A stretch of 34,598 nt of DNA from Paludibacteraceae bacterium (GTDB taxonomy: Bacteria > Bacteroidota > Bacteroidia > Bacteroidales > Paludibacteraceae), in NCBI GenBank assembly GCA_017551025.1, contig JAFZNG010000035.1, positions 1 through 34,598 of the forward strand, given 5' to 3'. Under the pieces are notes generated by a model that worked only from the letters and a program-made list of their open reading frames with translations, did not search any database and had not been told where the DNA came from. The stretch's first letter is position 1; each line of letters starts with the position of its first letter. Made by a program: the position numbers and the translations under genes. This document shows positions 344 through 27,050 of this stretch, piece by piece.

Positions 344-358
344 GCCCGTTTTGCTGAT
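327..358 (+). other. Perfect 13-bp inverted repeat around the stop codon
   Basis: Arms 327-339 (ATCAGCAAAACGG) and 346-358 are exact reverse complements with a 6-base loop that contains most of the TAA stop codon (341-343). There is no T tract after it, so it is not a standard rho-independent terminator. It could be a 3' mRNA-stabilising hairpin. A true terminator follows at 388-412. Confidence 0.6.
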
Positions 359-378
359 GGTGTATGGTGTATGGTGTA
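358..378. repeat. Tandem heptamer TGGTGTA x3
   Basis: Three exact head-to-tail copies of TGGTGTA lie between the small gene and the terminator. This is one member of a set of tandem repeats with a 7-base period found through the window. Confidence 0.8.
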
Positions 379-387
379 GAAAAGAAG

Positions 388-412
388 AAGCCCGAGGGAG
401 AGCCTCGGGCTT
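388..412. terminator. Bidirectional rho-independent terminator
   Basis: A 10-bp perfect stem (AAGCCCGAGG, 388-397, paired with 403-412) closes a 5-base loop. Read on the minus strand it is followed by a pyrimidine/T-rich run (CTTCTTCTTTT), so it best serves tnaA. On the plus strand the tail is a weaker TTCGCTTATT. It sits between two convergent genes. Confidence 0.8.
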
Positions 413-430
413 CGCTTATTGTGCGGTATG

Positions 431-1804: not shown

Positions 1805-1835
1805 GATATTGTGGGTTTTTGTTAAAAATTTGGTG

Positions 1836-1867
1836 CAAAGGTACAAAAAATAATTCAAAATTAAAAA
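1836..1867 (-). promoter_or_regulatory. tnaA promoter (TTTT-N20-TACCTTTG)
   Basis: On the minus strand TACCTTTG (1843-1836) fits the Bacteroidota -7 consensus TAnnTTTG exactly, 32 bases upstream of the tnaA ATG. The expected -33 position, 20 bases further up (1867-1864), falls in the AT-rich heptamer array at 1852-1882 and reads TTTT rather than TTTG. Confidence 0.65.
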
Positions 1868-1882
1868 TTAAAAATTAAAAAT
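1852..1882. repeat. AT-rich tandem heptamer array (TTAAAAA type)
   Basis: Units of 7 bases (TTCAAAA, then TTAAAAA three times) fill the gap between the AraC gene and tnaA. The array overlaps the presumed -33 region of the tnaA promoter. Related arrays occur at 3881-3910, 11743-11780 and 23638-23671. Confidence 0.85.
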
Positions 1883-1906
1883 GCTATCTCTGTCGTGCGT
1901 TTTTTG

Positions 1907-2764: not shown

Positions 2765-2779
2765 GGCCTAAATTTTCTG

Positions 2780-2811
2780 CAAAATTACAACAAAAAAATC
2801 ATATCTGCAAA
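2780..2811 (-). promoter_or_regulatory. AraC gene promoter (TTTG-N20-TAATTTTG)
   Basis: On the minus strand TTTG (2811-2808) and TAATTTTG (2787-2780) are separated by exactly 20 bases, matching the Bacteroidota housekeeping promoter. The predicted RNA would start only about 10 bases before the ATG at 2764, a short leader. Confidence 0.65.
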
Positions 2812-2841
2812 TCAAAAATGGCAGTTTTAGCAAAATTTGCA
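2806..2841. promoter_or_regulatory. Inverted repeat TGCAAAT / ATTTGCA, possible operator
   Basis: Perfect 7-base arms at 2806-2812 and 2835-2841. The left arm covers the -33 element of the AraC promoter, so a bound regulator could repress its own gene. AT-rich arms this short can arise by chance. Confidence 0.35.
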
Positions 2842-2864
2842 TAATTTCGGTCGGAAAAGTGTCA

Positions 2865-2916
2865 GTCTATGTGAAATAAAAGCAGTAATTTTGCAGCGTA
2901 ATTTGGAGACATAGAC
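2865..2916. promoter_or_regulatory. Inverted repeat GTCTATGT / ACATAGAC flanking the locus promoter
   Basis: Perfect 8-base arms at 2865-2872 and 2909-2916 bracket the -7 element at 2886-2893. One arm lies at the -33 position, the other just after the expected transcription start. This is a plausible regulator-binding dyad; the link to the AraC protein is inference. Confidence 0.4.
2886..2893 (+). promoter_or_regulatory. Glucan locus promoter -7 element TAATTTTG
   Basis: An exact TAnnTTTG match 47 bases before the GH94 start. The -33 position 20 bases upstream reads TCAG instead of TTTG, which would fit a promoter that needs an activator. Confidence 0.55.
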
Positions 2917-2939
2917 AAAAATAATCTTAAAATTGACGA

Positions 2940-5525
2940 ATGATGGCACAAGAGTACGGACATTTTGATGACGCCAAACGTGAGTATGTGATTACCAATC
3001 CACGAACCCCTTTCCCGTGGATCAACTACCTGGGTAATGAAGATTTTTTCGGACTGATTAGTAATACTGGCGGTGGCTATAATTTCTATAAGGACGCCAA
3101 GTTTCGCCGTATCACCCGATATCGCTATAATAGTGTACCGATGGACTCGGTCGGACGCTATTTCTATATTGTAGAAGACCGCTTCCAGGATGACCTAAGA
3201 GCAAAGACCGCTGACGCTGAAAGACCGGCTGCGCCTGAAAGACTGATCTGGAATCCGGGATGGAAACCATGCAAGACCGAGTTGGACAGTTATGAGTGTC
3301 GTCACGGATTGAACTACACGCGCATCACGGGCGTGAAGAATAAGGTTCGCGCGAGTGTGCTATATTTCGTGCCGCTGGGCGTAAAAGCAGAGATTCAGCG
3401 TCTGACGCTGACGAATGAGTCGGAGGGGAAGAAGACGCTGCGTCTCTTCAGTTACGCGGAGTGGTGTCTATGGAATGCCGCTACCGACGGCGAGAACTTC
3501 CAGAGGAATCTTTCGACCGGGGAAGTGGAGGTAGAGAAAGTCGAAAGTCAAAAGTCGAAAGACCGCTTCGCTCAAAGCAATGGTTGGACGGCTATCTATC
3601 ATAAGACCGAGTATAAGGAGCGCCGCAATCACTATGCGTACTATAGCGTGAATTGTCCGGTGCAGGGATACGATACCGACCGCGAGTCGTTCGTGGGATT
3701 GTACAATGATCTGAACGAGCCGCAAGTTGTATTAGCCGGTCATTCGGCTGACAGTCTGGCACACGGATGGAGTCCGATCGCAAGCCACTTTATCGAGGTA
3801 GAGTTAGCCCCGGGCGAGAGTAGAGATTTTATCTTCGTTCTCGGATATGAGGAGAACGAGGAATCGAACAAGTTCGAGGATTCCAAATTAAAAATTAAAA
3901 ATTCAAAATTACTCACTTCTCTTGGTGAGAAAGATCATCATATCATTAATAAGGAACGTGCGCACGAGGTGATTCGTCGTTTTGCGACCGTAGAGGCGGT
4001 AGATCAAGCGTTTGCGGAGTTGCAGGCCTTGTGGGATGAGTTGCTGAGCAAGTACCACGTGGAGAGTGATGACGAGCGCCTGAACCGGATGGTGAACATC
4101 TGGAATCAGTACCAGTGCATGGTGACGTTCTGCATGAGTCGTTCGGCTTCGTTCTTTGAGAGCGGTGTAGGACGCGGTATGGGTTTCCGGGATTCGAATC
4201 AGGACTTGGTGGGTTTTGTACATCAGATCCCGTCGCGTGCCCGTCAGCGCATCCTGGACATCGCGGCTACGCAGTTCCCGGATGGCGGTTGTTATCATCA
4301 GTATCAGCCCTTGACCAAACGCGGCAATAATGATATCGGCGGTGGTTTCAACGACGACCCGATGTGGTTGATCTTCGGTACGACGGCTTATATCCGTGAG
4401 ACGGGTGATTTCTCGATCCTGGATGAGATGGTGCCTTGGGACAACCAACCGGGTACGGAGGTGAGCCTGATGGAGCACCTGCGTATCTCGTTCAACCACG
4501 TGGTAGAGAACCTCGGCCCGCACGGACTGCCCTTGATAGGTCGTGCAGACTGGAATGACTGTCTGAACCTCAACTGCTTCTCGATGGACCCGAACGAGAG
4601 TTTCCAGACGACGGGCAACAAGACCGAAGGCAGCCAGGCAGAGAGCCTGATGATTGCAGGTCTGTTTGTCTATTGCGGACGGCAGTTTGTGGAATTGCTC
4701 GAGACCGCTTCGCTGAAAGACCGCTTCGCTGAAAGAATAAAGATCGCTTCGCTGAAAGAGGAGATTGAGAAGATGTGCCAAGCCGTAGAGGAGTTTGGCT
4801 GGGATGGCGAGTGGTACTTGCGCGCTTATGACTACTATGGTCATAAGGTAGGTTCGAAGGAGAACGAGGAAGGCAAGATCTTCATCGAGAGCCAAGGCTG
4901 GTGCGGCATGGCGCGTATCGGTGCGGAGAAAGGTATGCCGGAGAAGGCATTGGACAGTGCGGCACGGTGGTTGGACAGCGAGCACGGTATGGTGCTGAAC
5001 TATCCGGCCTATACGACCTATCATATCGAGCTGGGCGAACAGAGTACGTACCCCGCCGGCTATAAGGAGAATGGCGGTATCTTCTGCCATAACAATCCCT
5101 GGGTCATCATCGCCCAGACCGAAGCAGGTCGCGGTAACGATGCCTGGACGCTGTATAAGAAAATCGCTCCGGCATGGATCCAGGATCAGGACTTGCATAA
5201 AGTAGAGCCGTACGTGTACTGCCAGATGGTAGCAGGCAAAGAGGCGGCCAAACCCGGTGAGGGTAAGAACTCATGGTTGACCGGTACGGCAGCCTGGAAC
5301 TGGTTGACGATCAGTCAGCATATCCTGGGTATCCGTCCGACATACGAGGGACTGATGGTAGATCCGTGTATCCCGAGCGATATGAAGGAATATACCGTTA
5401 CGCGCAAATGGCGTGACGCAGAATATGTGATTACCGTTAAGAACCCGAACGGCAAGCAGAGGGCGGAGAAGCCGACCGTACTGCCGTATGAGCCGGGTAG
5501 ACACGAAGTAATAATCGAACTCTAG
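2940..5525 (+). CDS. Cellobiose phosphorylase, glycoside hydrolase family 94
   Basis: A cytoplasmic enzyme of 861 residues with no signal peptide. It cleaves cellobiose with phosphate to alpha-glucose 1-phosphate and glucose. It follows the Cellvibrio gilvus enzyme as I remember it nearly end to end: [14 protein letters not shown] at the start, [24 protein letters not shown], and the catalytic-acid motif [14 protein letters not shown] with Asp537. The C-terminal part has [13 protein letters not shown] and [13 protein letters not shown]. Cellodextrin phosphorylase is less likely on these motifs. It is ~40 residues longer than the C. gilvus enzyme; most of the excess falls at four places where the DNA is a short repeat (3203-3243, 3538-3580, 3881-3910, 4703-4757), all in frame. 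An ATG at 2943 is an equally good start. It is the first gene of the locus. Confidence 0.93.
3203..3243 (+). repeat. Two degenerate copies of the AAAGACCGCT-N-CGCT element in GH94
   Basis: AAAGACCGCTGACGCTGAAAGA is followed by a looser copy (AAAGACCGGCTGCGCCTGAAAGA). In frame it encodes [15 protein letters not shown], a stretch that I recall as shorter in C. gilvus cellobiose phosphorylase. Confidence 0.6.
3538..3580 (+). repeat. GTCGAAA heptamers plus AAAGACCGCT element in GH94
   Basis: Three units (GTCGAAA, GTCAAAA, GTCGAAA) run directly into GACCGCTTCGCTCAAAG. In frame this encodes [13 protein letters not shown] (residues 201-213), an insertion between GEVEVE and AIYHKTEY. Nearly the same composite lies in an unrelated gene at 21341-21388. 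Confidence 0.85.
3881..3910 (+). repeat. AT-rich heptamer array inside GH94
   Basis: Units TTCCAAA, TTAAAAA, TTAAAAA, TTCAAAA lie in frame and encode [12 protein letters not shown] (from residue 314), a short Lys-rich insertion in an otherwise GC-richer gene. The array at 23638-23671 encodes a very similar peptide in a glycosyltransferase. Confidence 0.85.
4703..4757 (+). repeat. Three copies of a 16-bp unit GACCGCTTCGCTGAAA in GH94
   Basis: Copies at 4703-4718 and 4719-4734 are identical and adjacent; a third (GATCGCTTCGCTGAAA) is at 4742-4757. Because 16 is not a multiple of three, the first and third are read as (T/I)ASLK and the second as DRFAE. The DNA, not the peptide, is what is repeated. 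Confidence 0.9.
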
Positions 5526-5551
5526 AACCTCTAGAGTCTCTAGAATATCTA
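5521..5551. repeat. CTCTAGA repeats, period 9, between GH94 and GH5
   Basis: CTCTAGAAC, CTCTAGAGT, CTCTAGAAT and ATCTAG follow one another, starting in the last codons of the GH94 gene (its TAG stop is inside the first unit). No promoter or terminator is seen in the 42-base gap. Confidence 0.7.
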
Positions 5552-5567
5552 GTAAAAATTTAATACC

Positions 5568-6857: not shown

Positions 6858-6869
6858 AATCTAATCGAC

Positions 6870-10022: not shown

Positions 10023-11744
10023 ATGGCAATTATGAAAAAGAATCTTTTATCTTTGAGCGCAAGCGTTCTTTTCACTTTGAGCGTAGCGGTCTTTGGCCTC
10101 GCTTCTTGCTCCGACAAGGTTTACGAGGAGATCAATACCGACCCGACGAAAGCCGATCATATCAATCCGGCATCTCAGTTGACGTATGCCGAATTGCAGA
10201 TCTTCGGTGATATGAACTATGTGGATGTACATCGTCTGTATACGTATGCGTTCACGCAGCACCTGATGGGTTGCTGGAACACAACCAATTACGGCGGTCA
10301 GCATCGTGCGGATGACAACGAGATGAGTCGTCCGTGGAACAACCTCTATCCGGCAGCTATTCGCAACCTGACCGATGCTATCGAGCAGACGAAGGACGAC
10401 AGTACGCTGGTAAACGTGAATGCCGCGTTGCGTATCTTCCGAGTATATGTGGGTTCGCTCCTGACGGATTTCTATGGTGATGTGCCGTTTACGGAGGCCG
10501 GTAAGGCTTTTATCTCCGGTATCACCCAGCCGAAGTATGACACGCAGGAAGACTTGTATAACTTGTTCTTTGCGGAACTGAAAGATGCGGCCAATTCGTT
10601 TGACAGCAAAGCCAAGGGCATAGAGAGTGATGCCTTGTTCGGTGGGAATATCTCCGCATGGAAGATGTTTGCCAACTCGCTTCGTTTGCGTTATGCGATG
10701 CGTATCTCGGATGTGAATCCGACCCTGGCGCAAGCAGAGTTTACGGCAGCCTTGGCAGACGGCGTAATGCGTAGTGCTGCGGATGATGCGTGTGTAGAAC
10801 ATATGAACGTAAGTTACAGTTTCGGTCAGGAGTCCTACAAAGACTTCCGCGGCAACGCCATGGCGAAGTATTTCTTCGGCAATGACCCGGCCAACAACCC
10901 GACGTATATATGCGAGACGTTCTGGAATCAGTTGTATACCAACAACGACCCGCGTACCACGCGCCTGTTCCGCTTCTATATTGATGACTTTATGGCTATC
11001 TCTACCGGCGACGGACGTATCGACATGACGGATGCGGTGATGGCTACCGAGGCATCCAACCCGGGTAAGATCATCTATCTGATTGCGCCGGGTCAGTTCA
11101 GCTGGGATAACTGGCCTTCTTATACCGACATACCGGGTAGTCCGCTGGCTAATCAAGTGGCGGAGGTGCAAGCCGCCCATACGGGCTTTAACCCGGGAGA
11201 GAATCCGCGTTGGTTGATGCCGAAACTGGCGATGAACTTCTTGCGTTCGGACAACCCGGGTGTGCTGATGACGTATGCTGAGGTATGTTTCCTGCGTGCG
11301 GAGGCAGCTATCAACGGTTGGACCGGCGATAATGCAAAGCAGTACTACGAGGACGGTATCCGTGCATCGATGAATTTCCTCTCGGACAACTACGGTTGCC
11401 AGAAGATAGAGGATGCGGAGGTGGATGCTTATCTGGCTCAGCCGTCTATCGCTTGGGGTGCCAGTGCAGCACAACAGAAGAACCAGATCAATACGCAGGC
11501 ATGGATTCTTCACTTCCACAACCCTGCAGAGGCTTGGGCTAACCAGCGTCGTTCGGATTATCCGGCTCTCACGCCTCCCGATCCGGCTGGCAAGAACCCG
11601 CTTATCGACGGAAACGCCATCCCTGTTCGTCTCTGCTACCCGCTCAAGGAAGAAACTTATAATAACGATGCGTATCAAGCTGCAAAAGCTCGTGTGAGCG
11701 GTACGTATGACTGGCACGCACGCCTATGGTGGGACGTGAAGTAA
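10023..11744 (+). CDS. SusD/RagB-like surface lipoprotein
   Basis: A protein of 573 residues that acts as the lid of the SusC transporter and binds oligosaccharide on the cell surface. Signal peptide with lipobox LASC (Cys at about residue 29), followed by YEEINTDPTKAD, the usual start of SusD proteins. Helical TPR-like parts include AYTYAFTQHLMG-like and WKMFANSLRLRYAMRI segments; the C-terminal region has VLMTYAEVCFLRAEAA, a RagB/SusD hallmark. The start could equally be the ATG at 10032 (MKKNLL). The signal-peptide DNA (10032-10100) is strikingly like that of the GH9 gene at 14374 and contains two reverse-oriented copies of the AAAGACCGCT element. Confidence 0.93.
   Translation: MAIMKKNLLSLSASVLFTLSVAVFGLASCSDKVYEEINTDPTKADHINPASQLTYAELQIFGDMNYVDVHRLYTYAFTQHLMGCWNTTNYGGQHRADDNEMSRPWNNLYPAAIRNLTDAIEQTKDDSTLVNVNAALRIFRVYVGSLLTDFYGDVPFTEAGKAFISGITQPKYDTQEDLYNLFFAELKDAANSFDSKAKGIESDALFGGNISAWKMFANSLRLRYAMRISDVNPTLAQAEFTAALADGVMRSAADDACVEHMNVSYSFGQESYKDFRGNAMAKYFFGNDPANNPTYICETFWNQLYTNNDPRTTRLFRFYIDDFMAISTGDGRIDMTDAVMATEASNPGKIIYLIAPGQFSWDNWPSYTDIPGSPLANQVAEVQAAHTGFNPGENPRWLMPKLAMNFLRSDNPGVLMTYAEVCFLRAEAAINGWTGDNAKQYYEDGIRASMNFLSDNYGCQKIEDAEVDAYLAQPSIAWGASAAQQKNQINTQAWILHFHNPAEAWANQRRSDYPALTPPDPAGKNPLIDGNAIPVRLCYPLKEETYNNDAYQAAKARVSGTYDWHARLWWDVK
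10050..10096 (-). repeat. Two reverse copies of the AAAGACCGCT element in the SusD signal peptide
   Basis: On the minus strand the copies read AAAGACCGCTACGCTCAAAG and AAAAGAACGCTTGCGCTCAA(AG). On the plus strand they encode the hydrophobic core SLSASVLFTLSVAVF. Confidence 0.7.
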
Positions 11745-11780
11745 TTATAAATTATAAATTAAGAATTAAAAATTAGGAAT
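11743..11780. repeat. AT-rich heptamer array between SusD and the binding lipoprotein
   Basis: Units TTATAAA, TTATAAA, TTAAGAA, TTAAAAA, TTAGGAA fill the whole 37-base gap and end two bases before the next ATG, so the array forms the translation leader of the downstream gene. Confidence 0.85.
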
Positions 11781-11781
11781 T

Positions 11782-13020
11782 ATGAAAGCGAAATATTTAA
11801 TTCTCATAGCCACTCTGGCGACAGCGGTCTTTACCTCTTGCGAGAAACAGGATCCGTATGATACCCAGTCGCCGGATGACGCCCCACTGATCTTGGTACC
11901 CTACGAGACCAAGACGGGTCAGATCACGTATACGCTGGCTAATCCGGACACGCCGCTCAAAGACTCGGTGGTGGTTACTCCCTCGGCTTATACTACGGTC
12001 AACTGGTATCTCGATGACGAACTGGTATATACCGGCACGAAGATTGAGAAATGTTTCCTGGCAGGTAACTACTCGCTGACACTGGAAGCAGTGACCACCG
12101 CAGGCAAGCGTACATCGCGTACGGGTACCGTCACGGTCAACCCGTATCCGGAAGATCCGTCGTCTCAGGCGCCGGCTGCCGGTCGCCATTTTGTGCCCGG
12201 TACGGCCGCTACGCTGACCGGTGTAAACCTGACGAAAGTAAAGACAGTGGTAGTGTCGCGTGATCTGGGCGGCAACGATGTCGTTTGTGCTATTGACGTG
12301 ACTGCTGCAGACGATGCGACGTTGACATTCGACCTGCCGGAAATGGCAGAAGGCGTGTATTTCGTGCGCTTCAAGGATGCAGCCGGAAAGCTCTACGGTG
12401 CGGATACCTTTACCGCACATAACTCGGCGGTAGCGCTGGCCGGTTATGAGTCGTTCGTGCCGAATGAGGCATGGACCATTACCGGTGTAAAACTGGAGAA
12501 TGTAGCGTCGGTTACGGTGGACGAGACCGTTATTACCGAACTGACCGCCACGGCTACATCGATTACCTTCATGGCTCCGGCCGCTGAAGTGGGTGAGCAC
12601 ACCCTCTCGATGAAGAATGCCGATGGTTCGAGCGTGTTCTTCATTACCGACGCCGGTGCGGTGACCGAGGTGACCACGATCGTTTCGGAGGAGAGAACGC
12701 TATGGGAAGGCAGTTGTGTGATCAACTGGGGAGATGCCAATGTCAATGTGGACAAAGCTACGATGGCTAATGTGCCTGCGGGATCAACGGTATATATCTA
12801 CTATAACGTACCGGATGCGGATTACCACTCGCTGCGTGTTGTAGTGGCACCGGATTGGAGTGCGGATCTCTTGCCGCAAGTAGATGGTATGCAAGCTCAA
12901 GCCAACCCGTATACCTTCGTCTATGACAACGCCGGCAAGGCTGCAGCTGAAGCGGCGGATAAGAATGGTATTCTCATCACCGGCTTCGGTCTGGAGATAA
13001 CCAAAGTGACTTACAAATAA
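11782..13020 (+). CDS. Surface glycan-binding lipoprotein with Ig/IPT-like domains
   Basis: A protein of 412 residues located right after SusC/SusD, where such loci place their non-SusD binding protein. Signal peptide with lipobox TSCE (Cys19). The mature protein looks all-beta: a PKD-like first domain (~38-108, with TTVNWYLDDELVYTG), two IPT/TIG-like repeats (~115-205, HFVPGTAATLTGVNL; ~210-290, SFVPNEAWTITGVKL), and a C-terminal domain (~300-412) beginning RTLWEGSCVINWGDA, which resembles terminal glycan-binding domains of other Bacteroidota lipoproteins as I recall them. The paired F-V-P-G/N motifs show internal duplication. It should hold the polysaccharide at the surface for the enzymes. 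Sequence is weakly conserved in this class, so the ligand cannot be read from it. Confidence 0.8.
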   Translation: MKAKYLILIATLATAVFTSCEKQDPYDTQSPDDAPLILVPYETKTGQITYTLANPDTPLKDSVVVTPSAYTTVNWYLDDELVYTGTKIEKCFLAGNYSLTLEAVTTAGKRTSRTGTVTVNPYPEDPSSQAPAAGRHFVPGTAATLTGVNLTKVKTVVVSRDLGGNDVVCAIDVTAADDATLTFDLPEMAEGVYFVRFKDAAGKLYGADTFTAHNSAVALAGYESFVPNEAWTITGVKLENVASVTVDETVITELTATATSITFMAPAAEVGEHTLSMKNADGSSVFFITDAGAVTEVTTIVSEERTLWEGSCVINWGDANVNVDKATMANVPAGSTVYIYYNVPDADYHSLRVVVAPDWSADLLPQVDGMQAQANPYTFVYDNAGKAAAEAADKNGILITGFGLEITKVTYK

Positions 13021-14377: not shown

Positions 14378-16137
14378 AAAAGAGTCTTTTATCGTTAAGC
14401 GTAAGCGGTCTTTTGTCTTTGAGCGCAGCGGTCTTTTTTACGGGCTGCAAACCGGCGGCGATGATTCGTCTCAACCAAGTCGGCTATGCCCCCGGGCAGG
14501 AGAAGACTGCCACGATTGTGATGAATGCTTCGTCTACTGTACACCAGACACCGTATACCGTTTTTATCCTCGATGAAAACCGCGATACCGTTTGGATCGG
14601 TAACCCGTCACCCATAACCCATAACCCGATTTCCGGCAAACCCTGTCGGATAGTCGATTTCTCGGCGCTGACGACACCGGGAGCATATCAGATTGTTCTG
14701 AGAAATCGGAACACTCCGATTGTTCAGAGCTTTATTATCACAGATCGTCCTTACCGCGAACTGACGCGTCAGGCGCTGCGTGCCTACTACCACCAGCGTG
14801 CCTCGATGGCTACCGTCGAACCTTATGCTGAGGGATATGCCCGTCCGGCGGGTCATCCCGACGACCGGGTACTGGTGCATGCTTCGGCGGCTACGGCGGA
14901 GCGTCCTGAAGGCACCGTGATCTCTTGTCCGGGCGGATGGTATGATGCGGGGGATTACAATAAGTATATCGTCAATAGCGGCTTTACTATGGGCGTCTGG
15001 CTCATGGCCTACGAGATGAATAAGTCTTACTTTGATACCCTCTCGCTCAATATCCCGGAGTCCGTACACCGTACGCCGGATATGCTTGAGGAGGCTATGT
15101 ACAATCTTCGCTGGATGATGACGATGCAGGACTTGGACGGTGGCGTGTATCATAAGTTGACTGAACCCGACTTCGAGGGATTCATCGCTCCGCATAAGTG
15201 CCGTAAGCCGCGTTATGTGGTGCTTAAGACGACGGCTGCGGCATTGGACTTTGCCGCCACGATGGCACTTGCCGCACGCGTCTATGCTCCCTACGAGAAA
15301 TCTTTCCCGGGTTTCCCGGGTGAGGCTGCCGAGGCGGCGATTCGTGCTTATCAGTGGGCGGAGAAGAATCCACGCATCTATTACGACCAGCCGGCGATCA
15401 ATGAGAAGTTTACGCCTGCTATCAATACCGGTGCGTACGATGATACCGACGTGCGGGACGAGTTCCTATGGGCTGCCACCGAGTTGTACCTGCTCACCGG
15501 TGACGAGAAGTACAAATCACAAATCACCCATTACAAATCACCAATCGCCGGTTATCAACCGGCAGTTTGGGGTAATGTATGGGAACTCGCCTATCTCGAA
15601 CAGGCGATGCGCGATGGCAACTGCGATGCGTTGCTCGACTATCTCAAGCCGCTGCTCGACGAGGCCGATCGCTTGTCGGTCTTCCGTTCGCCGTACGGCA
15701 ACCGCGAGTCGGACTTCTTCTGGGGGTGCAATTCTGAGGGTTGTTGTTGGCGCGGTATCGAGTGTCTGTATGCCTACCGACTGACGGGCGATGACCGATT
15801 CCTGCGTAATGCGGCACGATGCCTGGATTACGTGCTCGGCCAAAATGCAACCGGTTACTGCTATGTCACGGGTTTTGGAACCCGGCCTACTTCGCATCCC
15901 CACCACCGTCTCTCGTATTCGCATCCTAAGGGCACTATCCCCGGTTTCCTGGCCGGTGGACCTAATCCGGCTCAGCAGGATGCCGTAACCGATGGCGTGC
16001 GTTATCCGAAGAACGTACCGGCAGATGAGAGTTATCTGGATAAACAACCCAGTTACGCCTCGAATGAGGTGACGATCAACTGGAATGTCACGCTCTTTGC
16101 TCTAACCGCAGGACTCGATGCTCTATCCCATCCGTAA
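14374..16137 (+). CDS. Lipoprotein GH9 endo/exo-glucanase with N-terminal Ig-like domain
   Basis: A protein of 587 residues. Lipobox FTGC (Cys25) puts it on a membrane, probably the outer one. Residues ~30-120 form the CelD-type Ig-like domain (MIRLNQVGYAPGQEKTA); the (alpha/alpha)6 catalytic domain follows. Catalytic residues are visible: Asp191 and Asp194 in GWYDAGDYNKY, the VTGFG...PHHR signature near residue 505, and the acid Glu565 in SNEVTINWN. It should act on cellulose or other beta-1,4-glucans; some GH9 lipoproteins of this architecture are beta-glucosidases or exo-enzymes, so the cleavage mode is open. Two heptamer arrays are encoded in frame, one in the Ig-like domain (14601-14628) and one in the catalytic domain (15512-15546). 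Its 3' end overlaps the epimerase gene by 20 bases. Confidence 0.92.
   Translation: MKKSLLSLSVSGLLSLSAAVFFTGCKPAAMIRLNQVGYAPGQEKTATIVMNASSTVHQTPYTVFILDENRDTVWIGNPSPITHNPISGKPCRIVDFSALTTPGAYQIVLRNRNTPIVQSFIITDRPYRELTRQALRAYYHQRASMATVEPYAEGYARPAGHPDDRVLVHASAATAERPEGTVISCPGGWYDAGDYNKYIVNSGFTMGVWLMAYEMNKSYFDTLSLNIPESVHRTPDMLEEAMYNLRWMMTMQDLDGGVYHKLTEPDFEGFIAPHKCRKPRYVVLKTTAAALDFAATMALAARVYAPYEKSFPGFPGEAAEAAIRAYQWAEKNPRIYYDQPAINEKFTPAINTGAYDDTDVRDEFLWAATELYLLTGDEKYKSQITHYKSPIAGYQPAVWGNVWELAYLEQAMRDGNCDALLDYLKPLLDEADRLSVFRSPYGNRESDFFWGCNSEGCCWRGIECLYAYRLTGDDRFLRNAARCLDYVLGQNATGYCYVTGFGTRPTSHPHHRLSYSHPKGTIPGFLAGGPNPAQQDAVTDGVRYPKNVPADESYLDKQPSYASNEVTINWNVTLFALTAGLDALSHP
14386..14438 (-). repeat. Two reverse copies of the AAAGACCGCT element in the GH9 signal peptide
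   Basis: On the minus strand: AAAGACCGCTGCGCTCAAAG and AAAAGACCGCTTACGCTTAA. On the plus strand they encode LLSLSVSGLLSLSAAVFF, the membrane-spanning core of the lipoprotein signal. The layout matches 10050-10096. Confidence 0.7.
14601..14628 (+). repeat. TAACCCA-type heptamers inside the GH9 Ig-like domain
   Basis: Units TAACCCG, TCACCCA, TAACCCA, TAACCCG in frame encode NPSPITHNPIS, a loop between WIG and GKPCRIVDF. Confidence 0.75.
15512..15546 (+). repeat. ACAAATC-type heptamers inside the GH9 catalytic domain
   Basis: Units ACAAATC, ACAAATC, ACCCATT, ACAAATC, ACCAATC in frame encode YKSQITHYKSPI, a loop after the ELYLLTGDE helix. Confidence 0.85.
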
Positions 16138-20042: not shown

Positions 20043-22346
20043 ATGAATAAGGTCATAAGCAAACGTTTCTTCTCCGAGAATGTAGCGGAACTGGTTATCG
20101 AAGCTCCGCTCATCGCACGTAGCCGTCGCGCCGGTCACTTTGTGATCGTACGCGTGGATAAAGACTCCGAGCGAATGCCGCTCACTATCGCTGCAGCCGA
20201 TACGGAGCAGGGAACGATCACACTCGTCGTACAACGTATAGGCGTCTCGTCCTATAAACTCTGTGCACTCAACCCGGGTGACGAGGTGCATGATATCGTA
20301 GGCCCGCTGGGTCGCGCTACGCGTATCGAGAACTACGGTACGGTTGTATGCGCCTGTGGCGGCGTAGGTGCAGCACCGATGCTGCCTATCGCCGAGGCAT
20401 TGAAGCGTGCCGGCAACCGCGTCATCACCGTACTGGCTGCCCGCAACGAGAGCCTGCTCATCCTGCGCGACGAACTCGCCCGCTGGTCGGACGAGGTGAT
20501 CATCATGACCGATGACGGTTCGGCCGGACAGAAAGGTGTAGTGACCCTGGGTATCGAACAGGTTATCCAGCGCGAGACCGTCAACAAGTGCATCACTATC
20601 GGTCCGGCGATCATGATGAAATTCGTAGCACTCACTACGGCGAAGTATAACATCCCCACCGAGGCCAGCCTGAATACCATCATGGTGGATGGTACCGGTA
20701 TGTGCGGTGCCTGCCGTGTATCCGTGGGCGGCAAGACCAAGTTCGTCTGCGTGGATGGTCCGGAATTTGACGCCCATGAAGTGGACTGGGACGAGATGCT
20801 CAGCCGCATGAAATCCTACAAGGCGGAAGAGGCTGCCGCTTTTGAAGCCTATCAAAAGGGCACTTCGGTTAATCAGAATACTCAGAATAATCCGAATACT
20901 CAGAATACTCAGAATGTTCAGTTCGGCGCCGTAGCACCCTTTGAAGGCAAACCCAAAGACCGCGTGGCTATTCCGCGCGTCAAGATGCCGGAACTCGATC
21001 CCAAAGTACGTGCCAAGAGTCTGCACGACGAGGTCAACCAAGGCCTCAGTTTCGAACAGGCTGTTACCGAGTCGCACCGCTGCCTCAACTGTAAGAACCC
21101 AACCTGCGTAGAGGGTTGCCCCGTAAATATCAATATCCCCGGTTTTATTAAGGAGATAGAGCGAGGCGATATCCAGGCCGCTGCGGCTGTTATTGCCCAG
21201 AGCAGTACGCTCCCCGCTGTGTGCGGTCGTGTCTGCCCGCAGGAGAAGCAATGCGAGAGTCGCTGTATCCATCATAAGATGGGTCACGAACCCGTAGCTA
21301 TCGGTTACCTGGAGCGATTTGTGGCGGATAATGCGCAAGAGTCGAAAGTCGAAAGTCGAAAGACCGCTAACGCTCAAAGACAAAAAATCGCTGTCGTTGG
21401 CTCTGGTCCTGCCGGTTTGGCTTTCTCGGGCGATATGGCTAAGTTCGGCTACGAGGTGCATGTATTCGAGGCTCTGCATGAGATAGGCGGTGTGCTGAAA
21501 TACGGTATTCCGGAGTTCCGTCTGCCCAATGCTATCGTGGATCGCGAGATAGGCGGTCTTAGCGACCTGGGTGTACAGTTCCATACCGATACTATCGTCG
21601 GCAAGACGATCACCGTAGATGACCTGATTGCACAGGGCTTTGCCGGTATATTCGTGGGTTCGGGTGCAGGTCTGCCCCGCTTCATGAACATCCCGGGTGA
21701 GAACCTGAATGGCGTACTCTCGTGCAACGAATATCTGACACGTGTCAACCTCATGGATGCCTCTAACCCCGCGACGGATACACCGCTGCTCAGCGGTAAG
21801 AACGTAGCCGTTATCGGTGGAGGTAACACCGCCATGGATGCCGTACGTACCGCCAAGCGACTGGGTGCCGAGCGCGCGATGATCATCTATCGCCGTAGCG
21901 AAGAGGAGATGCCGGCACGTATCGAAGAGGTGCGCCATGCCAAGGAAGAGGGCGTTGAGTTCCTCACGCTCCATAATCCTATCGAGTACCATGCCGATGA
22001 GAACGGCCGCGTCAAAGAAGCTGTGCTGCAAGTCATGCAGTTGGGCGAACCCGATGAGTCGGGCCGTCGCAGTCCGGTACCGGTAGAGGGACAGACGACG
22101 ACCGTAGCCGTTGATCTGGTCATCGTATCCGTGGGTGTCAGTCCTAACCCGCTCATCCCCTCGACGGTCAGCGGACTGGAGATTAGCCGCAAGGGTACTA
22201 TCGTGGTCAACGAGCAGATGCAGTCGTCTATCCCGACGCTATATGCCGGAGGTGATATTATCCGTGGTGGTGCCACCGTTATCCTGGCCATGGCTGACGG
22301 ACGTCATGCCGCTGCGGCTATGCATGAGCACTTGCAAGCGAAGTAA
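20043..22346 (+). CDS. Fused NfnA/NfnB-like flavoprotein (PyrK-like reductase + GltD-like subunit)
   Basis: A protein of 767 residues. Residues 1-265 are a ferredoxin-reductase-type module like the dihydroorotate dehydrogenase electron-transfer subunit, with a [2Fe-2S] site in GTGMCGACRVS. Residues ~310-767 match the glutamate synthase small subunit: Cys clusters CLNCKNPTCVEGCPV and CGRVCPQEKQCESRC, FAD motif GSGPAGL, NADPH motif GGGNTAMDA. Such fusions are common in Bacteroidota and are usually labelled glutamate synthase; the domain make-up is that of NADH-dependent ferredoxin:NADP+ oxidoreductase (Nfn) or sulfide dehydrogenase. No glutamate synthase large subunit is beside it, so balancing NADH, NADPH and ferredoxin is more likely. 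Repeats fill both linkers: a 9-base-period array at the fusion joint (20872-20921) and a heptamer composite before the FAD motif (21341-21388). It starts 6 bases after parC. Confidence 0.88.
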   Translation: MNKVISKRFFSENVAELVIEAPLIARSRRAGHFVIVRVDKDSERMPLTIAAADTEQGTITLVVQRIGVSSYKLCALNPGDEVHDIVGPLGRATRIENYGTVVCACGGVGAAPMLPIAEALKRAGNRVITVLAARNESLLILRDELARWSDEVIIMTDDGSAGQKGVVTLGIEQVIQRETVNKCITIGPAIMMKFVALTTAKYNIPTEASLNTIMVDGTGMCGACRVSVGGKTKFVCVDGPEFDAHEVDWDEMLSRMKSYKAEEAAAFEAYQKGTSVNQNTQNNPNTQNTQNVQFGAVAPFEGKPKDRVAIPRVKMPELDPKVRAKSLHDEVNQGLSFEQAVTESHRCLNCKNPTCVEGCPVNINIPGFIKEIERGDIQAAAAVIAQSSTLPAVCGRVCPQEKQCESRCIHHKMGHEPVAIGYLERFVADNAQESKVESRKTANAQRQKIAVVGSGPAGLAFSGDMAKFGYEVHVFEALHEIGGVLKYGIPEFRLPNAIVDREIGGLSDLGVQFHTDTIVGKTITVDDLIAQGFAGIFVGSGAGLPRFMNIPGENLNGVLSCNEYLTRVNLMDASNPATDTPLLSGKNVAVIGGGNTAMDAVRTAKRLGAERAMIIYRRSEEEMPARIEEVRHAKEEGVEFLTLHNPIEYHADENGRVKEAVLQVMQLGEPDESGRRSPVPVEGQTTTVAVDLVIVSVGVSPNPLIPSTVSGLEISRKGTIVVNEQMQSSIPTLYAGGDIIRGGATVILAMADGRHAAAAMHEHLQAK
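20872..20921 (+). repeat. TCAGAATAC repeats, period 9, at the fusion joint of the Nfn-like gene
   Basis: About five units of TCAGAATAC with small changes encode NQNTQNNPNTQNTQNVQ (about residues 277-293), a flexible linker joining the two ancestral subunits. Confidence 0.85.
21341..21388 (+). repeat. GTCGAAA heptamers plus AAAGACCGCT element in the Nfn-like gene
   Basis: GTCGAAA three times, then GACCGCTAACGCTCAAAGA. In frame it encodes SKVESRKTANAQRQ (residues ~433-447) between the iron-sulfur domain and the FAD motif KIAVVGSGPAG. The composite nearly duplicates that at 3538-3580 in the phosphorylase gene. Confidence 0.85.
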
Positions 22347-22382
22347 TACTAGAAACCATATACCATAAAAACACACACTACT

Positions 22383-23279: not shown

Positions 23280-24192
23280 GAATAAGTTCTGCACGATCCA
23301 GCACGCCCAAGGCGGCCAGATCCATGATAGTAGAGTAGCCCGAGCGGGCAATGATATGATGTGCGTGGAGCAATGCTCCGCGCATTTCGTTATCCGATAG
23401 GTGGGGAACGACGGTCAGATGACCGCGATGTATCGTGGTGCGTGGCCGACCGATGAGTCCCTGCACGAGCAGTACCTCCTGCTCGCTATGTGCAAAGCGT
23501 TCCCGGAGTTGTTGCTCGAATAGACTGCGCTGCGGTTCCAGTCCGCTCAGTACGGCTACCGTGTCGTATGTTTTTGTCGGCGTGCTGCTATCCGAAGTCG
23601 CCGGGAGTGTAAACCGACTCAGTGGCCCGATATACGTAATTTTTAATTTTAAATTTTTAATTTTGAATTTCTCAGGGTGACTGAGCGCACCGCTCAGGCA
23701 ACGTGATGTATCTTCATAGTCGGGCACCCATACTTCCGCGTACCTATTATATATACGCGCGTGCAACGCGTGCGCAAGGGGTTCGAGCCAGTGCCAGCCA
23801 TCCGGCAGACAGATATGCAATTGATGGGTGAGATAGACGCAGCGCGTGCCGGGCGTATAGAGTCCGAAACGGTTGTCGGAGATGATCATCTCGAATCCGT
23901 ACTCCCGCTGGTAGCGGCGTAAGAGACGATGGTCCTGCAGGCTGCTCCATAGGATACGCGGCATCGCGCGTAGCATCGCTCCTACCTGACTATGCCCACG
24001 ACTGTAACGCAGATTAAGCGGCGAAAGGGCTAAGACGCTAAGTTTTGGAAAATGGCGCCTAAGTAGCATCAAACTCTCGCCATCACCGCCCAATACAACC
24101 TGATGTCCCTCATCCAGCAGGCGCTGAATAAGCGGGATACAACGGGTGGCATGTCCCAACCCCCAATTGAGCGGCGAAACAAGAACAAGCAT
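23194..24192 (-). CDS. MurG-like glycosyltransferase, GT-B fold
   Basis: A protein of 332 residues resembling a Bacteroidota family with the GT-B fold. N-terminal half: LVSPLNWGLGHATRCIPLIQ (the GxGHxxR nucleotide-sugar motif), GGDGESLMLLRR, ISDNRFGLY. C-terminal half: AVLSGLEPQRSLFEQQL, LTVVPHLSDNEM, ARSGYSTIMDLAALG and PTPGQPEQIYLA. The acceptor is unknown; a cell-envelope glycan is plausible. The interdomain link contains an AT-rich heptamer array encoding FKIKNLKLKI. It ends only ~17 residues after PTPGQ, within the antisense of the AraC gene, and may be C-terminally altered. It is the last gene of the minus-strand operon, 5 bases after the radical SAM gene. Confidence 0.8.
   Translation of the reverse strand: MLVLVSPLNWGLGHATRCIPLIQRLLDEGHQVVLGGDGESLMLLRRHFPKLSVLALSPLNLRYSRGHSQVGAMLRAMPRILWSSLQDHRLLRRYQREYGFEMIISDNRFGLYTPGTRCVYLTHQLHICLPDGWHWLEPLAHALHARIYNRYAEVWVPDYEDTSRCLSGALSHPEKFKIKNLKLKITYIGPLSRFTLPATSDSSTPTKTYDTVAVLSGLEPQRSLFEQQLRERFAHSEQEVLLVQGLIGRPRTTIHRGHLTVVPHLSDNEMRGALLHAHHIIARSGYSTIMDLAALGVLDRAELIPTPGQPEQIYLARAIDEARGRCRDGRNA
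23638..23671 (-). repeat. AT-rich heptamer array inside the glycosyltransferase gene
   Basis: On the minus strand the units are TTCAAAA, TTAAAAA, TTTAAAA, TTAAAAA. In frame they encode KFKIKNLKLKI between SGALSHPE and TYIGPLSRF, the usual linker of the two GT-B halves. Confidence 0.85.
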
Positions 24193-24197
24193 ATCGT

Positions 24198-24965
24198 TTA
24201 GGCGCTGATGATTACGTCGTAGCCTTGGGCTATCAATGGTGCGGCGATGCGCTCCATCTCTTCGCGGGGTATTTTAGACAAGTGTTCTTCGGGCGTCTTG
24301 CGGTCAATGACATAGATCATGATTTGCTTGGGATGCAGACAATGTACGGCGGCGTACCATGCCTCGAGTTCCTCGGGCCTGGTGTTGTCGATTGGTTGCC
24401 CGTCATGTTCGCCACGCAGGAAACAGGTCTGTAGGGTGAAGTCGCCCCCGAACTGTTGGAGTCCGGCTTCGATCTGTGCCACGGTCAGCGAGGCGTTGAC
24501 CGGCAGGTCGATACGGCGCATCATCTCGTCGGTGGCGGCATCGAGTTTGAGGATGCGGTTGTCGCATCGGCGCAGGGCTTCCACTACCTCCGGCCGTCCC
24601 AGTTGGGTCGCATTGCTCAGCACGCTCACCTTGGCCCGAGGTTGATAGCGGTTGCGCAAGATCAGCGTATCGTCGATGATACCGGCAAAGTCGGGATGCA
24701 GGGTCGGTTCGCCGTTGCCGGAGAACGTGATGACATCCAGGGTCGTACCTTCGGCTGCCAGCGCCTGCAGCTTTCGCTCCAGCGCTTCGCGCACCTGTTC
24801 GCGGGACGGCAACTGAGGATGACTGATCGGACTATTCCAACCGCATTCACAATAGACGCAGTTGAAGGTACAAAGCTTATGATTGAGCGGCATGAGTTCC
24901 ATGCCGAGACTTACGCCTAGTCGGCGCGAGTGGATAGGTCCGTATGCGATTTCCGTAAAGAGCAT
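24198..24965 (-). CDS. Radical SAM protein, wyosine-related (COG0731-like)
   Basis: A protein of 255 residues with the radical SAM motif CxxxCxxC at Cys32, Cys36 and Cys39 (LCTFNCVYCECGW), preceded by AYGPIHSRRLGVSLGMELMP, a signature of a widespread bacterial group distantly related to the tRNA wybutosine enzyme TYW1. ITFSGNGEPTLHPDF is the second SAM-binding motif. The reaction of the bacterial members is not established to my knowledge. There is no extra C-terminal iron-sulfur domain. It lies 12 bases after dnaG and 5 bases before the glycosyltransferase in the same operon. Confidence 0.85.
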   Translation of the reverse strand: MLFTEIAYGPIHSRRLGVSLGMELMPLNHKLCTFNCVYCECGWNSPISHPQLPSREQVREALERKLQALAAEGTTLDVITFSGNGEPTLHPDFAGIIDDTLILRNRYQPRAKVSVLSNATQLGRPEVVEALRRCDNRILKLDAATDEMMRRIDLPVNASLTVAQIEAGLQQFGGDFTLQTCFLRGEHDGQPIDNTRPEELEAWYAAVHCLHPKQIMIYVIDRKTPEEHLSKIPREEMERIAAPLIAQGYDVIISA

Positions 24966-24977
24966 AGGCTGGCAGGA

Positions 24978-27002
24978 TTAGTGGGTGATGACGCGGTTGC
25001 CCAACTGACGGCAAATCTGGTTGCGTATCTCGAGCAGTCGGGGTTGATCGGCCAGCAACAAGCGCTGCATTTCCCAGTTGCCGCTTTTCTCTGCCTCTTG
25101 GAGTGCACGCTCCATTTCGTCGATACGTTGCTCCAGAATGGTGTATTTGAGTTCCAGCAGCAGGCGCGGGATGAGCGTAGGCAGATCGTCTTCCTCGGTC
25201 TTGGGTTTGACCGTCTGAGTTACGTTCTCGGAGATGCTCTGTTTACTGAAGATAGTACTCAGTTGGTACTTGTCGGCAATGAGTTCGATAGCCAGCGCAC
25301 TGATCTCGGGATCGGGGTGGAACTTATAGAACTGGGCGGCCTGGAATCCCTCGTCGGATTGATGCTCGGCAAAGGCGTCAATGACCTGCTGGTAAAGCGG
25401 CGTCGGTGCCTGGATATCATCCGCACGCAGTTGGGCGATGATATACGCACCTACACTGATGACGCTGCCGTCGCTCAGGGTGTAGAGCGGTCGCTCGCCG
25501 TAGCGTACGATGAGTTGCAATAGGTTGCGATAGTTGGTAAGCAAGGCTGCCGATTGTTTTGGCTCAGCCACCATGACGGGAACGGTCGTCTCCGCCGGCG
25601 TTTGGCCCTCAACTGCCAACGCCTCTTCCTGAGGCTGAGGCTCTGTGCGGTCGTCCGGCTCATTTTCCTTAAAGATCGCTCGGCGCTGTTTCTGCACCTC
25701 GTCCAGTAACAGCTTCTCGGCTATCTGCATCCGCTCTGCCGTGTCGCTGATATAGACCTGACGCGTGATGCGGTCGGGTATTTGGGCGATAGAGAGCGTG
25801 ATATCCTTGATCAGTTGTGCCCGTTTTTGCGGGTCGTTGCCCATTTCGGTGCGCAGCAGATCCACCTTGAAGCGGATGAAGTCGGTTTGATGAGTTTGGA
25901 TATATTTGATGAAGTCCGAGGCGTTGTGCGAGCGTGCAAAACTGTCGGGGTCTTCACCATCGGGCAGGAGCAGTACCTTGACATTAAATCCCTCGCTGAG
26001 GAACATATCGATACCGCGTAGGGCGGCGTGGATACCGGCCGCATCACCGTCGTACAGCACCGTAATGTTGCTCGTGAAGCGCTTGATAAGCAGGATTTGC
26101 TGCTTGGTGAGTGCCGTGCCACCACTGGCTACGACGTTCTCTATGCCCGCTTGGTGCATCGAGATGACATCCATCTGTCCCTCCACGAGGTAGCAGAGGT
26201 CAGCTCGCGAGATAGCCTGCTTGGCGATGAAGATGCCGTACAGTTCGCGCGTCTTAGAGTAGATAATCGAGTCGGGCGAATTGACGTATTTGCCTACGTT
26301 GTCTTTTTTCTTGAGGATACGTCCGGCAAAGCCGACGATCTTACCGCTTACAGAGTGGATGGGGAAGATGACACGGTCGCGGAAACGGTCGTACAAGTGA
26401 CCGTCCTGTTGGCCTCGTCCGCATATACCTGTGCCGACTTTGGATTCTACATCGTTGAGGATATACTCCTCGCGGAAACCTTGTTTTTGGAGCGCCTTGG
26501 CAAGCGGACTGCCTTTCTCGGGCGAGTAGCCGAGTTGAAACTTACGGATGATATCATCCCGTAGACCGCGCTCATGGAAGTATCCGAGGCCTACAGCTTG
26601 ACCTTCCGGGGTATCCCAAAGCTGCTGCTGAAACCAGGTGTTGGCAAACTCATTGACGGCGAACATCGACTCGCGGTTGTCTTGGTGCTGCTGTTCTTCG
26701 GCGGTGAGTTGCCGTTCCTCAATCTCGATATGATAGCGACGGGCTACCTGCTTCAGCGCTTCGGTGTAGGAGCATTGTTCGATCTCCTGCACAAACTTTA
26801 CGGCATGACCGCTCACGCCGCAACCGAAGCACTTATAGATACCCTTGGACGGACTGACGGTGAACGACCCGGTCTTCTCCTGGTGGAAAGGACACAAGCC
26901 GATGAGGTTGGCACCGCGACGGTGCAACTTCACGTAGTCGCCCACGATATCTTCTATCTTGGCCGCCTCGTATATGCGATCAATGGTTTCCTTTGGAATC
27001 AT
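24978..27002 (-). CDS. dnaG: DNA primase
   Basis: A protein of 674 residues that makes RNA primers at the replication fork. The zinc-binding domain has Cys37, His40, Cys58 and Cys61 (CPFHQEKTGSF...YKCFGCG). The RNA polymerase core includes GRILKKKDNVGKYVNSPDS; the Toprim motif is LVEGQMDVISMHQAG with the acidic partner LYDGDAAGIHA. A Pro/Glu-rich linker (~445-480, EPDDRTEPQPQEEALAVEG) leads to a C-terminal helical region that should bind the DnaB helicase; this part is poorly conserved, as usual. The length is normal for Bacteroidota DnaG. It sits among envelope genes instead of with rpsU-rpoD. Confidence 0.95.
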   Translation of the reverse strand: MIPKETIDRIYEAAKIEDIVGDYVKLHRRGANLIGLCPFHQEKTGSFTVSPSKGIYKCFGCGVSGHAVKFVQEIEQCSYTEALKQVARRYHIEIEERQLTAEEQQHQDNRESMFAVNEFANTWFQQQLWDTPEGQAVGLGYFHERGLRDDIIRKFQLGYSPEKGSPLAKALQKQGFREEYILNDVESKVGTGICGRGQQDGHLYDRFRDRVIFPIHSVSGKIVGFAGRILKKKDNVGKYVNSPDSIIYSKTRELYGIFIAKQAISRADLCYLVEGQMDVISMHQAGIENVVASGGTALTKQQILLIKRFTSNITVLYDGDAAGIHAALRGIDMFLSEGFNVKVLLLPDGEDPDSFARSHNASDFIKYIQTHQTDFIRFKVDLLRTEMGNDPQKRAQLIKDITLSIAQIPDRITRQVYISDTAERMQIAEKLLLDEVQKQRRAIFKENEPDDRTEPQPQEEALAVEGQTPAETTVPVMVAEPKQSAALLTNYRNLLQLIVRYGERPLYTLSDGSVISVGAYIIAQLRADDIQAPTPLYQQVIDAFAEHQSDEGFQAAQFYKFHPDPEISALAIELIADKYQLSTIFSKQSISENVTQTVKPKTEEDDLPTLIPRLLLELKYTILEQRIDEMERALQEAEKSGNWEMQRLLLADQPRLLEIRNQICRQLGNRVITH

Positions 27003-27008
27003 GCGCGT

Positions 27009-27050
27009 ATAACCTTTAACCTCTAACCTTTAGCCTCTAACCTTTAGCCA
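27009..27050. repeat. AACCTTT-type heptamer array between the barrel gene and dnaG
   Basis: Six 7-base units (AACCTTT, AACCTCT, AACCTTT, AGCCTCT, AACCTTT, AGCC) fill nearly the whole 48-base gap upstream of dnaG. On the minus strand this is the leader of dnaG and is purine-rich (AGAGGTTAAAGG), so it could supply ribosome-binding sequence. Confidence 0.85.

What the first reader, a model, noticed from the sequence alone, without database searches (positions are those of the whole stretch)
358..27050. Many unrelated tandem repeats share a 7-base period
At least nine arrays in 27 kb have a 7-base period but different unit sequences: TGGTGTA (358), TTAAAAA type (1852, 3881, 11743, 23638), GTCGAAA (3538, 21341), TAACCCA (14601), ACAAATC (15512) and AACCTTT (27009). 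Some fill short gaps between genes and others lie in frame inside enzymes. The common period with differing sequence points to a shared way of making or keeping them, not to one transposon family. The nearest analogue I know is the heptamer STRR repeats of cyanobacteria. I do not know of a described equivalent in Bacteroidales, though similar strings may have been noticed there.
Basis: partly seen in the sequence, partly recalled or inferred. Interest (0 to 1): 0.8.

Follow-up and report, generated by a model that had tools for sequence, protein, structure and literature searches.

The report
Heptamer arrays rewriting a rumen genome
A rumen Paludibacteraceae bacterium and many of its relatives carry hundreds of short DNA arrays repeating every 7 bases, often with different units at the same place in different species, which looks like a period-specific copying process that slowly rewrites gene ends and loose protein loops.

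Summary
All ten listed arrays exist. In 832 kb (43%) of this 1.94 Mb draft genome, 203 of 355 called arrays (periods 5-23) have period 7. Half of that sample was biased to AATTAAA sites; the less biased half gives 76 in 398 kb. In gaps, 150 period-7 arrays stand against 2 in simulated sequence. They form 54 unit families, mostly 25-35 bp. Congener G035 repeats the pattern (137 in 477 kb); congener G028 (200 kb) and E. coli (100 kb) show none. Arrays sit just after stop codons, in inter-cistronic gaps and in frame inside enzyme loops. The same gap or loop in other species is empty, or holds another repeat. No target-site duplication; no RVT_1 match in this draft. Best reading: a period-7-specific slippage or realignment process keeps 4-5-unit arrays alive and turns over their units at unconstrained sites, with some copying between loci. 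Heptamer-rich bacterial genomes are known, so this is a new variant of a known kind. The enzyme responsible is not identified.

The parts
357..378 (+). ATGGTGT array, 3.1 units, gap between convergent genes
1852..1882 (+). AATTAAA array, 4.4 units, in the gap about 24 bp after the stop of an AraC-type regulator gene (minus strand) and before a Beta_elim_lyase gene
3536..3561 (+). GTCGAAA/GTCAAAA array in frame inside a GH94 enzyme; absent or different in 7 orthologous sequences from 6 congeners
3885..3911 (+). AATTAAA array in frame between the two GH94 domains; one of two G004 copies also has AATTAAA there, and two other congeners (L222, L223) have other period-7-like units
11743..11786 (+). 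AATTATA/AATTAAA array filling the 37-bp gap from the stop of a SusD-like gene to the start of the next gene
14601..14627 (+). TAACCCA array in frame in a GH9 enzyme; no net length change against four orthologues without an array (L233-L236)
15512..15546 (+). ACAAATC array in frame in the GH9 catalytic domain; weak (75% matches)
21340..21362 (+). GTCGAAA array in an interdomain linker; other congeners carry other repeats or plain sequence at this linker
23637..23670 (-). AATTAAA-type array inside ORF 23194-24192 (minus strand, no Pfam match); L029-L031 have no array there
27010..27053 (-). TAAAGGT/TAGAGGC array between an upstream gene and a dnaG primase gene; L030 has the empty site (overlapping ATGA stop-start), L029 has other period-7 arrays

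Best explanation
These are members of a genome-wide population of heptanucleotide arrays kept by a period-7-specific replication slippage or primer-realignment process. Shown: period 7 dominates; arrays have a typical size of 4-5 units (25-35 bp); many different units occur; arrays lie where sequence is least constrained (near stop codons, inter-cistronic gaps, protein loops and linkers); and at one site the unit often differs between species while the 7-base spacing stays. Inferred: once a site has about three heptamers, a polymerase or repair step with a 7-nt register adds, removes and homogenises units, so that arrays settle at 4-5 units and drift in sequence; selection removes arrays from constrained sequence; now and then an array is copied to another locus, which would explain the large AATTAAA family of this species. 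The enzyme is unknown.
For: Period-7 excess in this genome and in G035 and in 80 relatives' gyrA loci (133 arrays at period 7, the next 53 at period 11; 54 of 80 loci have at least one). Typical size 25-35 bp across unit families: 73 of 116 own arrays outside the AATTAAA family, 105 of 137 in G035, 88 of 133 in relatives, but only 11 of 20 in G017. Orthologous gaps: same-gap units are more alike than shuffled ones (mean distance 2.04 against 2.80 of 7, 0 of 300 shuffles as low), yet 119 of 160 same-gap pairs differ at two or more positions: the array persists and its unit turns over. In-phase mosaics of units within one array. No target-site duplication. Location: 97 of 117 co-directional arrays overlap or lie within 15 bp of the upstream stop; in 39 gaps above 80 bp, 29 are nearer the stop and 10 nearer the start. 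Literature: Mrazek's idea of a polymerase register for heptamers, as cited in PMC4692102 and PMC4679880 (passages read).
Against: A plain slippage model predicts many two-copy 7-bp duplications. Outside called arrays, exact period-7 runs of >=7 matches are not special (15 against 11.3 expected; period 8 has 31 against 5.3), though at >=8 matches there is a mild excess (8 against 3.0; period 8 has 13 against 1.7). In own gaps the smallest class (score 7-8) is ordinary for period 7 while full-size arrays peak, so a threshold for slippage is needed. One family (AATTAAA, 87 of 203 arrays in a sample partly biased to it) dominates this genome, with the same variant units at the same position in unlinked arrays, which points to copying. 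Units share a sequence grammar beyond composition, which pure slippage does not predict. Much of the closeness to stop codons is forced by short gaps: 61 of 117 are also within 15 bp of the downstream start. Why 7 and not 6 or 8 is not explained, and no strain-level length variation could be seen.
Confidence: 0.47

Rival explanations
1. Block copying: finished arrays of about 33 bp are copied whole from one locus into another (template switching, ectopic gene conversion or an unknown insertion activity), and each species amplifies its own families.
For: In own gaps period-7 scores do not fall off but peak at full size: 23, 19, 16, 18, 23, 47, 35, 11 over the bins 7-8 to 25+. AATTAAA arrays: 68 of 103 are 31-34 bp and 90 of 103 start at the same unit position or one base before it; 65 of 71 arrays of 31-36 bp have five boxes. 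Among 53 arrays with exactly one variant unit of the seven commonest types, 127 pairs are identical against 91 expected (5 of 5000 permutations as high); position-by-type association 142 of 5000. Empty sites in relatives: an overlap of -4 opened to +48 and +73.
Against: 31 of 54 own families have a single array and G017 has 19 families in 20 arrays, so copying cannot be the general source. Intermediate sizes do exist (19 arrays of score 9-10 in own gaps against 2-8 for other periods), and in relatives the size classes are flat, not peaked (129, 28, 20, 20, 25, 24, 16, 27). Some coding arrays replace loop sequence without net length change (14601). No target-site duplication or inverted flanks.
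Confidence: 0.3
2. Functional element: heptad-spaced sites for a DNA- or RNA-binding protein, or unstructured spacers with stops in all three frames between genes.
For: Fairly constant size and spacing; placement near stop codons; 76 of 117 co-directional arrays have stops in all three frames on the sense strand, 58 of 117 on the antisense strand; shared unit grammar.
Against: Presence at orthologous gaps is sporadic (58 of 551 gaps); units differ between species at the same gap; 61 of 203 own arrays lie inside called genes (approximate); G028 shows none in 200 kb.
Confidence: 0.12
3. Assembly artefact of short-read metagenome assemblies.
For: AATTAAA arrays never show a pure run over 28 bp while other own families reach 37, which fits collapse of pure arrays by a k-mer assembler; 2 of 33 own contig ends inspected end in period-7 arrays.
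Against: Period-7 arrays occur in 54 of 80 relatives' loci from many separately deposited MAGs, lie in frame in conserved enzymes, and hold internal variants that anchor their length; at least 8 of the 33 contig ends carry another multi-copy module instead.
Confidence: 0.04

Closest known systems
Heptanucleotide long simple sequence repeats of prokaryotes (Mrazek 2007, seen only as cited in PMC4679880 and PMC4692102)
   Same: Period 7 is the commonest class in most genomes studied; a polymerase register was proposed as cause.
   Different: Here 54 units in 832 kb of one genome, 4-5 units typical, many in frame in enzymes, and unit replacement at orthologous sites.
GGGAATC arrays of Xanthomonas and GGGGA(C/T)T arrays of Nostoc (Rehm 2015, PMC4692102, abstract and passages read)
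   Same: 186 and 183 heptamer arrays in two Xanthomonas genomes, most with four units; length and sequence variation between close species.
   Different: That study concerns one G-rich, quadruplex-forming unit type; none of these units was found among the 203 own or 137 G035 arrays.
TAACTGA repeats of Beggiatoaceae, cyanobacteria and five Bacteroidetes (MacGregor 2015, PMC4679880, abstract, passages and section 12 read)
   Same: Intergenic heptamer arrays, 2-6 copies in the Beggiatoaceae genome; shorter gaps without repeats in close relatives of some; two sets in Paludibacter propionicigenes.
   Different: One unit, mostly just upstream of start codons in that genome; here many units and arrays that hug stop codons. 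TAACTGA itself: 0 of 203 own arrays, 1 of 137 in G035.
STRR repeats of cyanobacteria (recalled)
   Same: Heptamer tandem repeats dispersed in a genome.
   Different: Fixed unit sequences; the CCCCAAT and CCCCAGT units that I recall are in 0 of 203 own and 0 of 137 G035 arrays.
Rickettsia palindromic elements (recalled)
   Same: Repeats that end up in frame inside loops of diverse proteins.
   Different: Those are longer palindromes of a few families; these arrays are direct repeats.

Membership tests
Heptanucleotide long simple sequence repeat | Tandem 7-nt units longer than chance allows | tested here: met
Heptanucleotide long simple sequence repeat | Copy number varies between strains by slippage | not testable with these tools
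   Only one genome per species was available
Cyanobacterial STRR | Specific unit sequences (CCCCAAT or CCCCAGT, recalled) | tested here: not met
   0 of 203 own and 0 of 137 G035 arrays
TAACTGA repeats | Unit TAACTGA | tested here: not met
   0 of 203 own arrays; 1 of 137 in G035
Transposon or MITE | Target-site duplication | tested here: not met
   TSD-like lengths equal those of shuffled flanks, 90 AATTAAA arrays; other families not tested
Transposon or MITE | Terminal inverted repeats | tested here: not met
   Inverted matches in the 15-bp flanks equal those of shuffled flanks, 90 AATTAAA arrays; other families not tested
Reverse-transcriptase-made repeats (telomerase-like, DGR) | A reverse transcriptase in the genome | tested here: not met
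   PF00078: 0 matches in G000 and in G035, both rich in arrays; drafts, 95% and 97% complete, so a gene could be missing
Rickettsia palindromic element | Palindromic sequence inserted in frame | tested here: not met
   In frame yes; direct repeats rather than palindromes

The most novel reading that the evidence does not exclude
A dedicated or diverted enzyme writes size-defined blocks of 4-5 heptamers into the genome, with a unit drawn from a species-specific repertoire, and so steadily replaces gene ends and protein loops with new sequence. Finished blocks would appear in one step, which would explain why the smallest period-7 duplications are not in excess while full-size arrays are.
Probability: 0.1. 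Interest if true: 0.92.

Novelty: new variant of a known kind. Interest (0 to 1): 0.6.

Why it matters
Why heptamers are the favoured long simple repeat of bacteria was asked in 2007 and, in the papers I saw, has not been put to a test. A genus in which species carry from none seen to roughly 20-30 such arrays per 100 kb, with many units, makes the question testable: the responsible step should differ between G028-like and G035-like species. It also shows how tandem repeats can feed new sequence into enzyme loops and separate overlapping genes without breaking them, since a 7-base spacing puts a stop-bearing unit in all three frames.

Tried and rejected
One transposon family: rejected by differing units, no target-site duplication and no inverted flanks, both tested on AATTAAA arrays only. 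Reverse transcriptase source: no PF00078 match in this genome or in G035. Phage vector: the exact 26-mer AATTAAAAATTAAAAATTAAAAATTA occurs in only 33 stretches of the 2.9 million viral contigs; these were not read further. General bias to 7-bp duplication: not special among periods. Identity of variant arrays as proof of copying: the first null (90 pairs against 26) was too loose because nearly every array has a variant; with that fixed the excess is smaller. Hot gaps: arrays share gaps across species only slightly more than gap length predicts (102 pairs against 80, 72 of 2000 permutations as high). Divergent gaps: 8 arrays where 33 are expected by gap length but 12 by number of gaps; convergent gaps 15 against 20 and 13, so no enrichment there. 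The reversed-pattern controls are uninformative because those heptamers are mirror-symmetric. G046 and G055 stretches were chosen at known matches, and the own stretches came from contigs that one search had listed, so their densities are too high. My gene caller is crude: it missed ORF 23194-24192, so 'inside genes' (61 of 203) is approximate. Literature: 8 searches in open-access papers; Mrazek 2007 is not held. I found no description of multi-unit heptamer arrays in Paludibacteraceae in those searches, which does not prove absence.
Full report
WHAT WAS CHECKED. The ten period-7 arrays named in the finding are all present. In the window, exact period-7 runs with at least 12 matches number 5; none appeared in 20 Markov simulations. 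The window is the whole contig C31 of a 1.94 Mb, 36-contig draft that is 95% complete (window length equals the contig). Its relatives by GyrA are MAGs labelled Paludibacteraceae or Bacteroidales, many from rumen or gut (best 80 kept).

GENOME-WIDE PERIOD. On 434 kb, period 7 gives 80 exact runs (expected 0.0), its multiples 14 and 21 give 31 and 25, period 11 gives 7, all others at most 5. On 832 kb (43% of the genome) a caller that allows mismatches finds 203 period-7 arrays among 355 of period 5-23. Half of this sample came from contigs listed for AATTAAA matches and is rich in that pattern (35.2 per 100 kb against 20.2 genome-wide); the other half has 18.1 and yields 76 arrays in 398 kb, about 19 per 100 kb. 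In own gaps, 150 arrays of score 11 or more stand against 2 in simulated sequence. With the same caller: G035 28.7 per 100 kb in 477 kb (some of its contigs were also known from pattern matches), G017 7.1 in 280 kb, G033 3.1 in 160 kb, G028 0 in 200 kb, E. coli K-12 0 in 100 kb; G007 18.2 in 33 kb, G001 11.2 in 80 kb, G008 0 in 43 kb. The trait is strong in part of the genus and not seen in other parts. In 80 relatives' gyrA loci (1.54 Mb) period 7 is again first with 133 arrays, then period 11 with 53; 54 of the 80 loci have at least one.

UNITS AND SIZE. The 203 own arrays fall into 54 unit families, 31 of them with one array. The large ones are AATTAAA (87), AGTTGAG (11), ACACCAT (11), AAAGTCG (9) and ACACCCT (7). 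G035 has 48 families in 137 arrays, G017 19 in 20. When units are rotated and flipped to a common register they share a pattern, roughly T[AC]ANYNN, beyond composition: 3.87 bits against a permuted maximum of 3.12 for 36 own units of the first 434 kb, and 3.64 against 2.87 for 73 units of relatives (10 permutations each). Most arrays are 25-35 bp: 73 of 116 own arrays outside the AATTAAA family, 105 of 137 in G035 and 11 of 20 in G017, 88 of 133 in relatives. AATTAAA arrays are sharper still: 68 of 103 are 31-34 bp, and 65 of 71 arrays of 31-36 bp have five boxes. G035 shows the same form by eye.

WHERE THEY LIE. Of 203 own arrays, 117 are in gaps between co-directional genes, 15 convergent, 8 divergent, 61 inside called genes, 2 at edges. 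Divergent gaps are poor in arrays (33 expected by gap length, 12 by gap number); convergent gaps are near expectation (20 and 13). In co-directional gaps 97 of 117 overlap or lie within 15 bp of the upstream stop, and 61 are also within 15 bp of the downstream start, since many gaps are short; in 39 gaps above 80 bp, 29 arrays are nearer the stop and 10 nearer the start. The stop codon ends inside the array in 71 of 117. This is what tolerance predicts: promoters and coding cores are avoided.

SAME SITE, OTHER SPECIES. At 27010 the congener L030 has overlapping genes (ATGA) and no array, the window has TAAAGGT/TAGAGGC units, and L029 has other period-7 arrays. In the linker at 21340, 30 genus orthologues (of 41 genomes searched) show a range: period-7 arrays with other units (for example L114, L115, L120), other tandem periods, palindromic repeats, or plain linkers, mainly in the more distant congeners (read by eye). 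In the GH94 and GH9 enzymes the same loops hold different heptamer-like units in some species and plain sequence in others; at 14601 four plain orthologues have the same loop length, so there the array has rewritten rather than lengthened the loop (alignments in such loops are loose). GH94 was found in 8 of 41 genomes and GH9-like matches in 11 of 41, so these comparisons rest on few species. Over 551 orthologous gaps in 38 clusters of four or more species, 58 hold period-7 arrays. Units at the same gap are more alike than shuffled units (mean distance 2.04 against 2.80; 0 of 300 shuffles as low), but 119 of 160 pairs still differ at two or more of seven positions; 26 are identical. So arrays can persist through speciation while their unit changes. 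L061 and L070 share an identical array with similar flanks, probably by descent.

HOW IT MAY WORK. Simple slippage alone is not enough. Outside called arrays, 7-bp duplications with 7 or more matches are near chance (15 against 11.3), whereas periods 8, 10 and 11 exceed it; at 8 or more matches period 7 has 8 against 3.0. In own gaps the period-7 scores read 23, 19, 16, 18, 23, 47, 35, 11 over the bins 7-8 to 25+: an ordinary smallest class, some intermediates, and a peak at full size, while other periods fall off; in relatives the larger classes are flat rather than peaked. Either arrays become slippery only beyond about three units and then move to a set size, which I prefer, or whole blocks are copied. 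Copying between loci is supported for the AATTAAA family: 63 of 95 arrays have exactly one variant unit among the first four; in the 53 with a common variant type, the same variant at the same position recurs at unlinked loci more than expected (127 pairs against 91, 5 of 5000 permutations), and variants favour units three and four. But single-array families are common here and the rule in G017, so copying is not the general source. There is no target-site duplication, and no RVT_1 match in this genome or in G035.

CAUTION ON ASSEMBLY. No AATTAAA array has a pure run above 28 bp, although other own families reach 37 bp, and none of the 95 four-unit arrays is free of variants. Short-read assemblers may have shortened pure arrays by one unit. 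Arrays with internal variants, and arrays in frame in conserved enzymes, are less open to that doubt. Of 33 own contig ends looked at, 2 end in period-7 arrays and at least 8 carry another multi-copy module.

KNOWN OR NEW. Heptamers as the favoured long simple repeat, and a polymerase register as cause, are Mrazek's (2007; seen only through PMC4679880 and PMC4692102). Xanthomonas GGGAATC arrays also mostly have four units (PMC4692102, passages). MacGregor (PMC4679880, section 12) describes heptamer arrays in five Bacteroidetes. Not seen in those papers are the number of units in one genome, the presence-absence pattern within a genus, and the rewriting of the same gaps and enzyme loops with new heptamers. 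I file it as a new variant of a known kind.

Noticed in passing
window:10043-10094 and 14384-14437: Period-24 repeats lie inside what look like lipoprotein signal peptides of the SusD-like protein and the GH9 enzyme (MKKNLLSLSASVLFTLSVAV.. and MKKSLLSLSVSGLLSLSAAV..), so a repeat family seems to have been built into signal peptides.
   Followed up: partly
window:3203-3243, 4702-4759, 3561-3580, 21362-21380: A second repeat family with core GACCGCTnnnGCT, next to GTCGAAA units at two places in the window; at 3203 it is an insert of at least 60 nt in a GH94 enzyme that seven orthologous sequences lack. In the genome sample there are 21 sites of a looser core, 3 with a GTCRAAA-like unit nearby.
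   Followed up: partly
L112, L119, L129, L130 and L123, L125 (linker of the DHODB/GltD-like protein): Other repeat kinds at the same linker in congeners: units around CGGTCTGTCAGCGAAG and palindromic CCTCTCCTCAAGAGAGG elements, in frame (by eye).
   Followed up: no
window:1-343; ends of contigs C1, C2, C5, C17, C30, C34, C36; inside C16: A multi-copy coding module (KHEKMLLGTHRKAA..) sits at several contig ends and may have broken the assembly; no Pfam match.
   Followed up: partly
window:31117-31214: Two adjoining period-11 arrays (GATGACACCTT and AGAATAACTAA); period 11 is the second peak among relatives.
   Followed up: no
G046 (another family of the order): 165 places of the AATTAAA pattern, many as AATTAAC/AATTAAT units in runs, outside this genus.
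   Followed up: no
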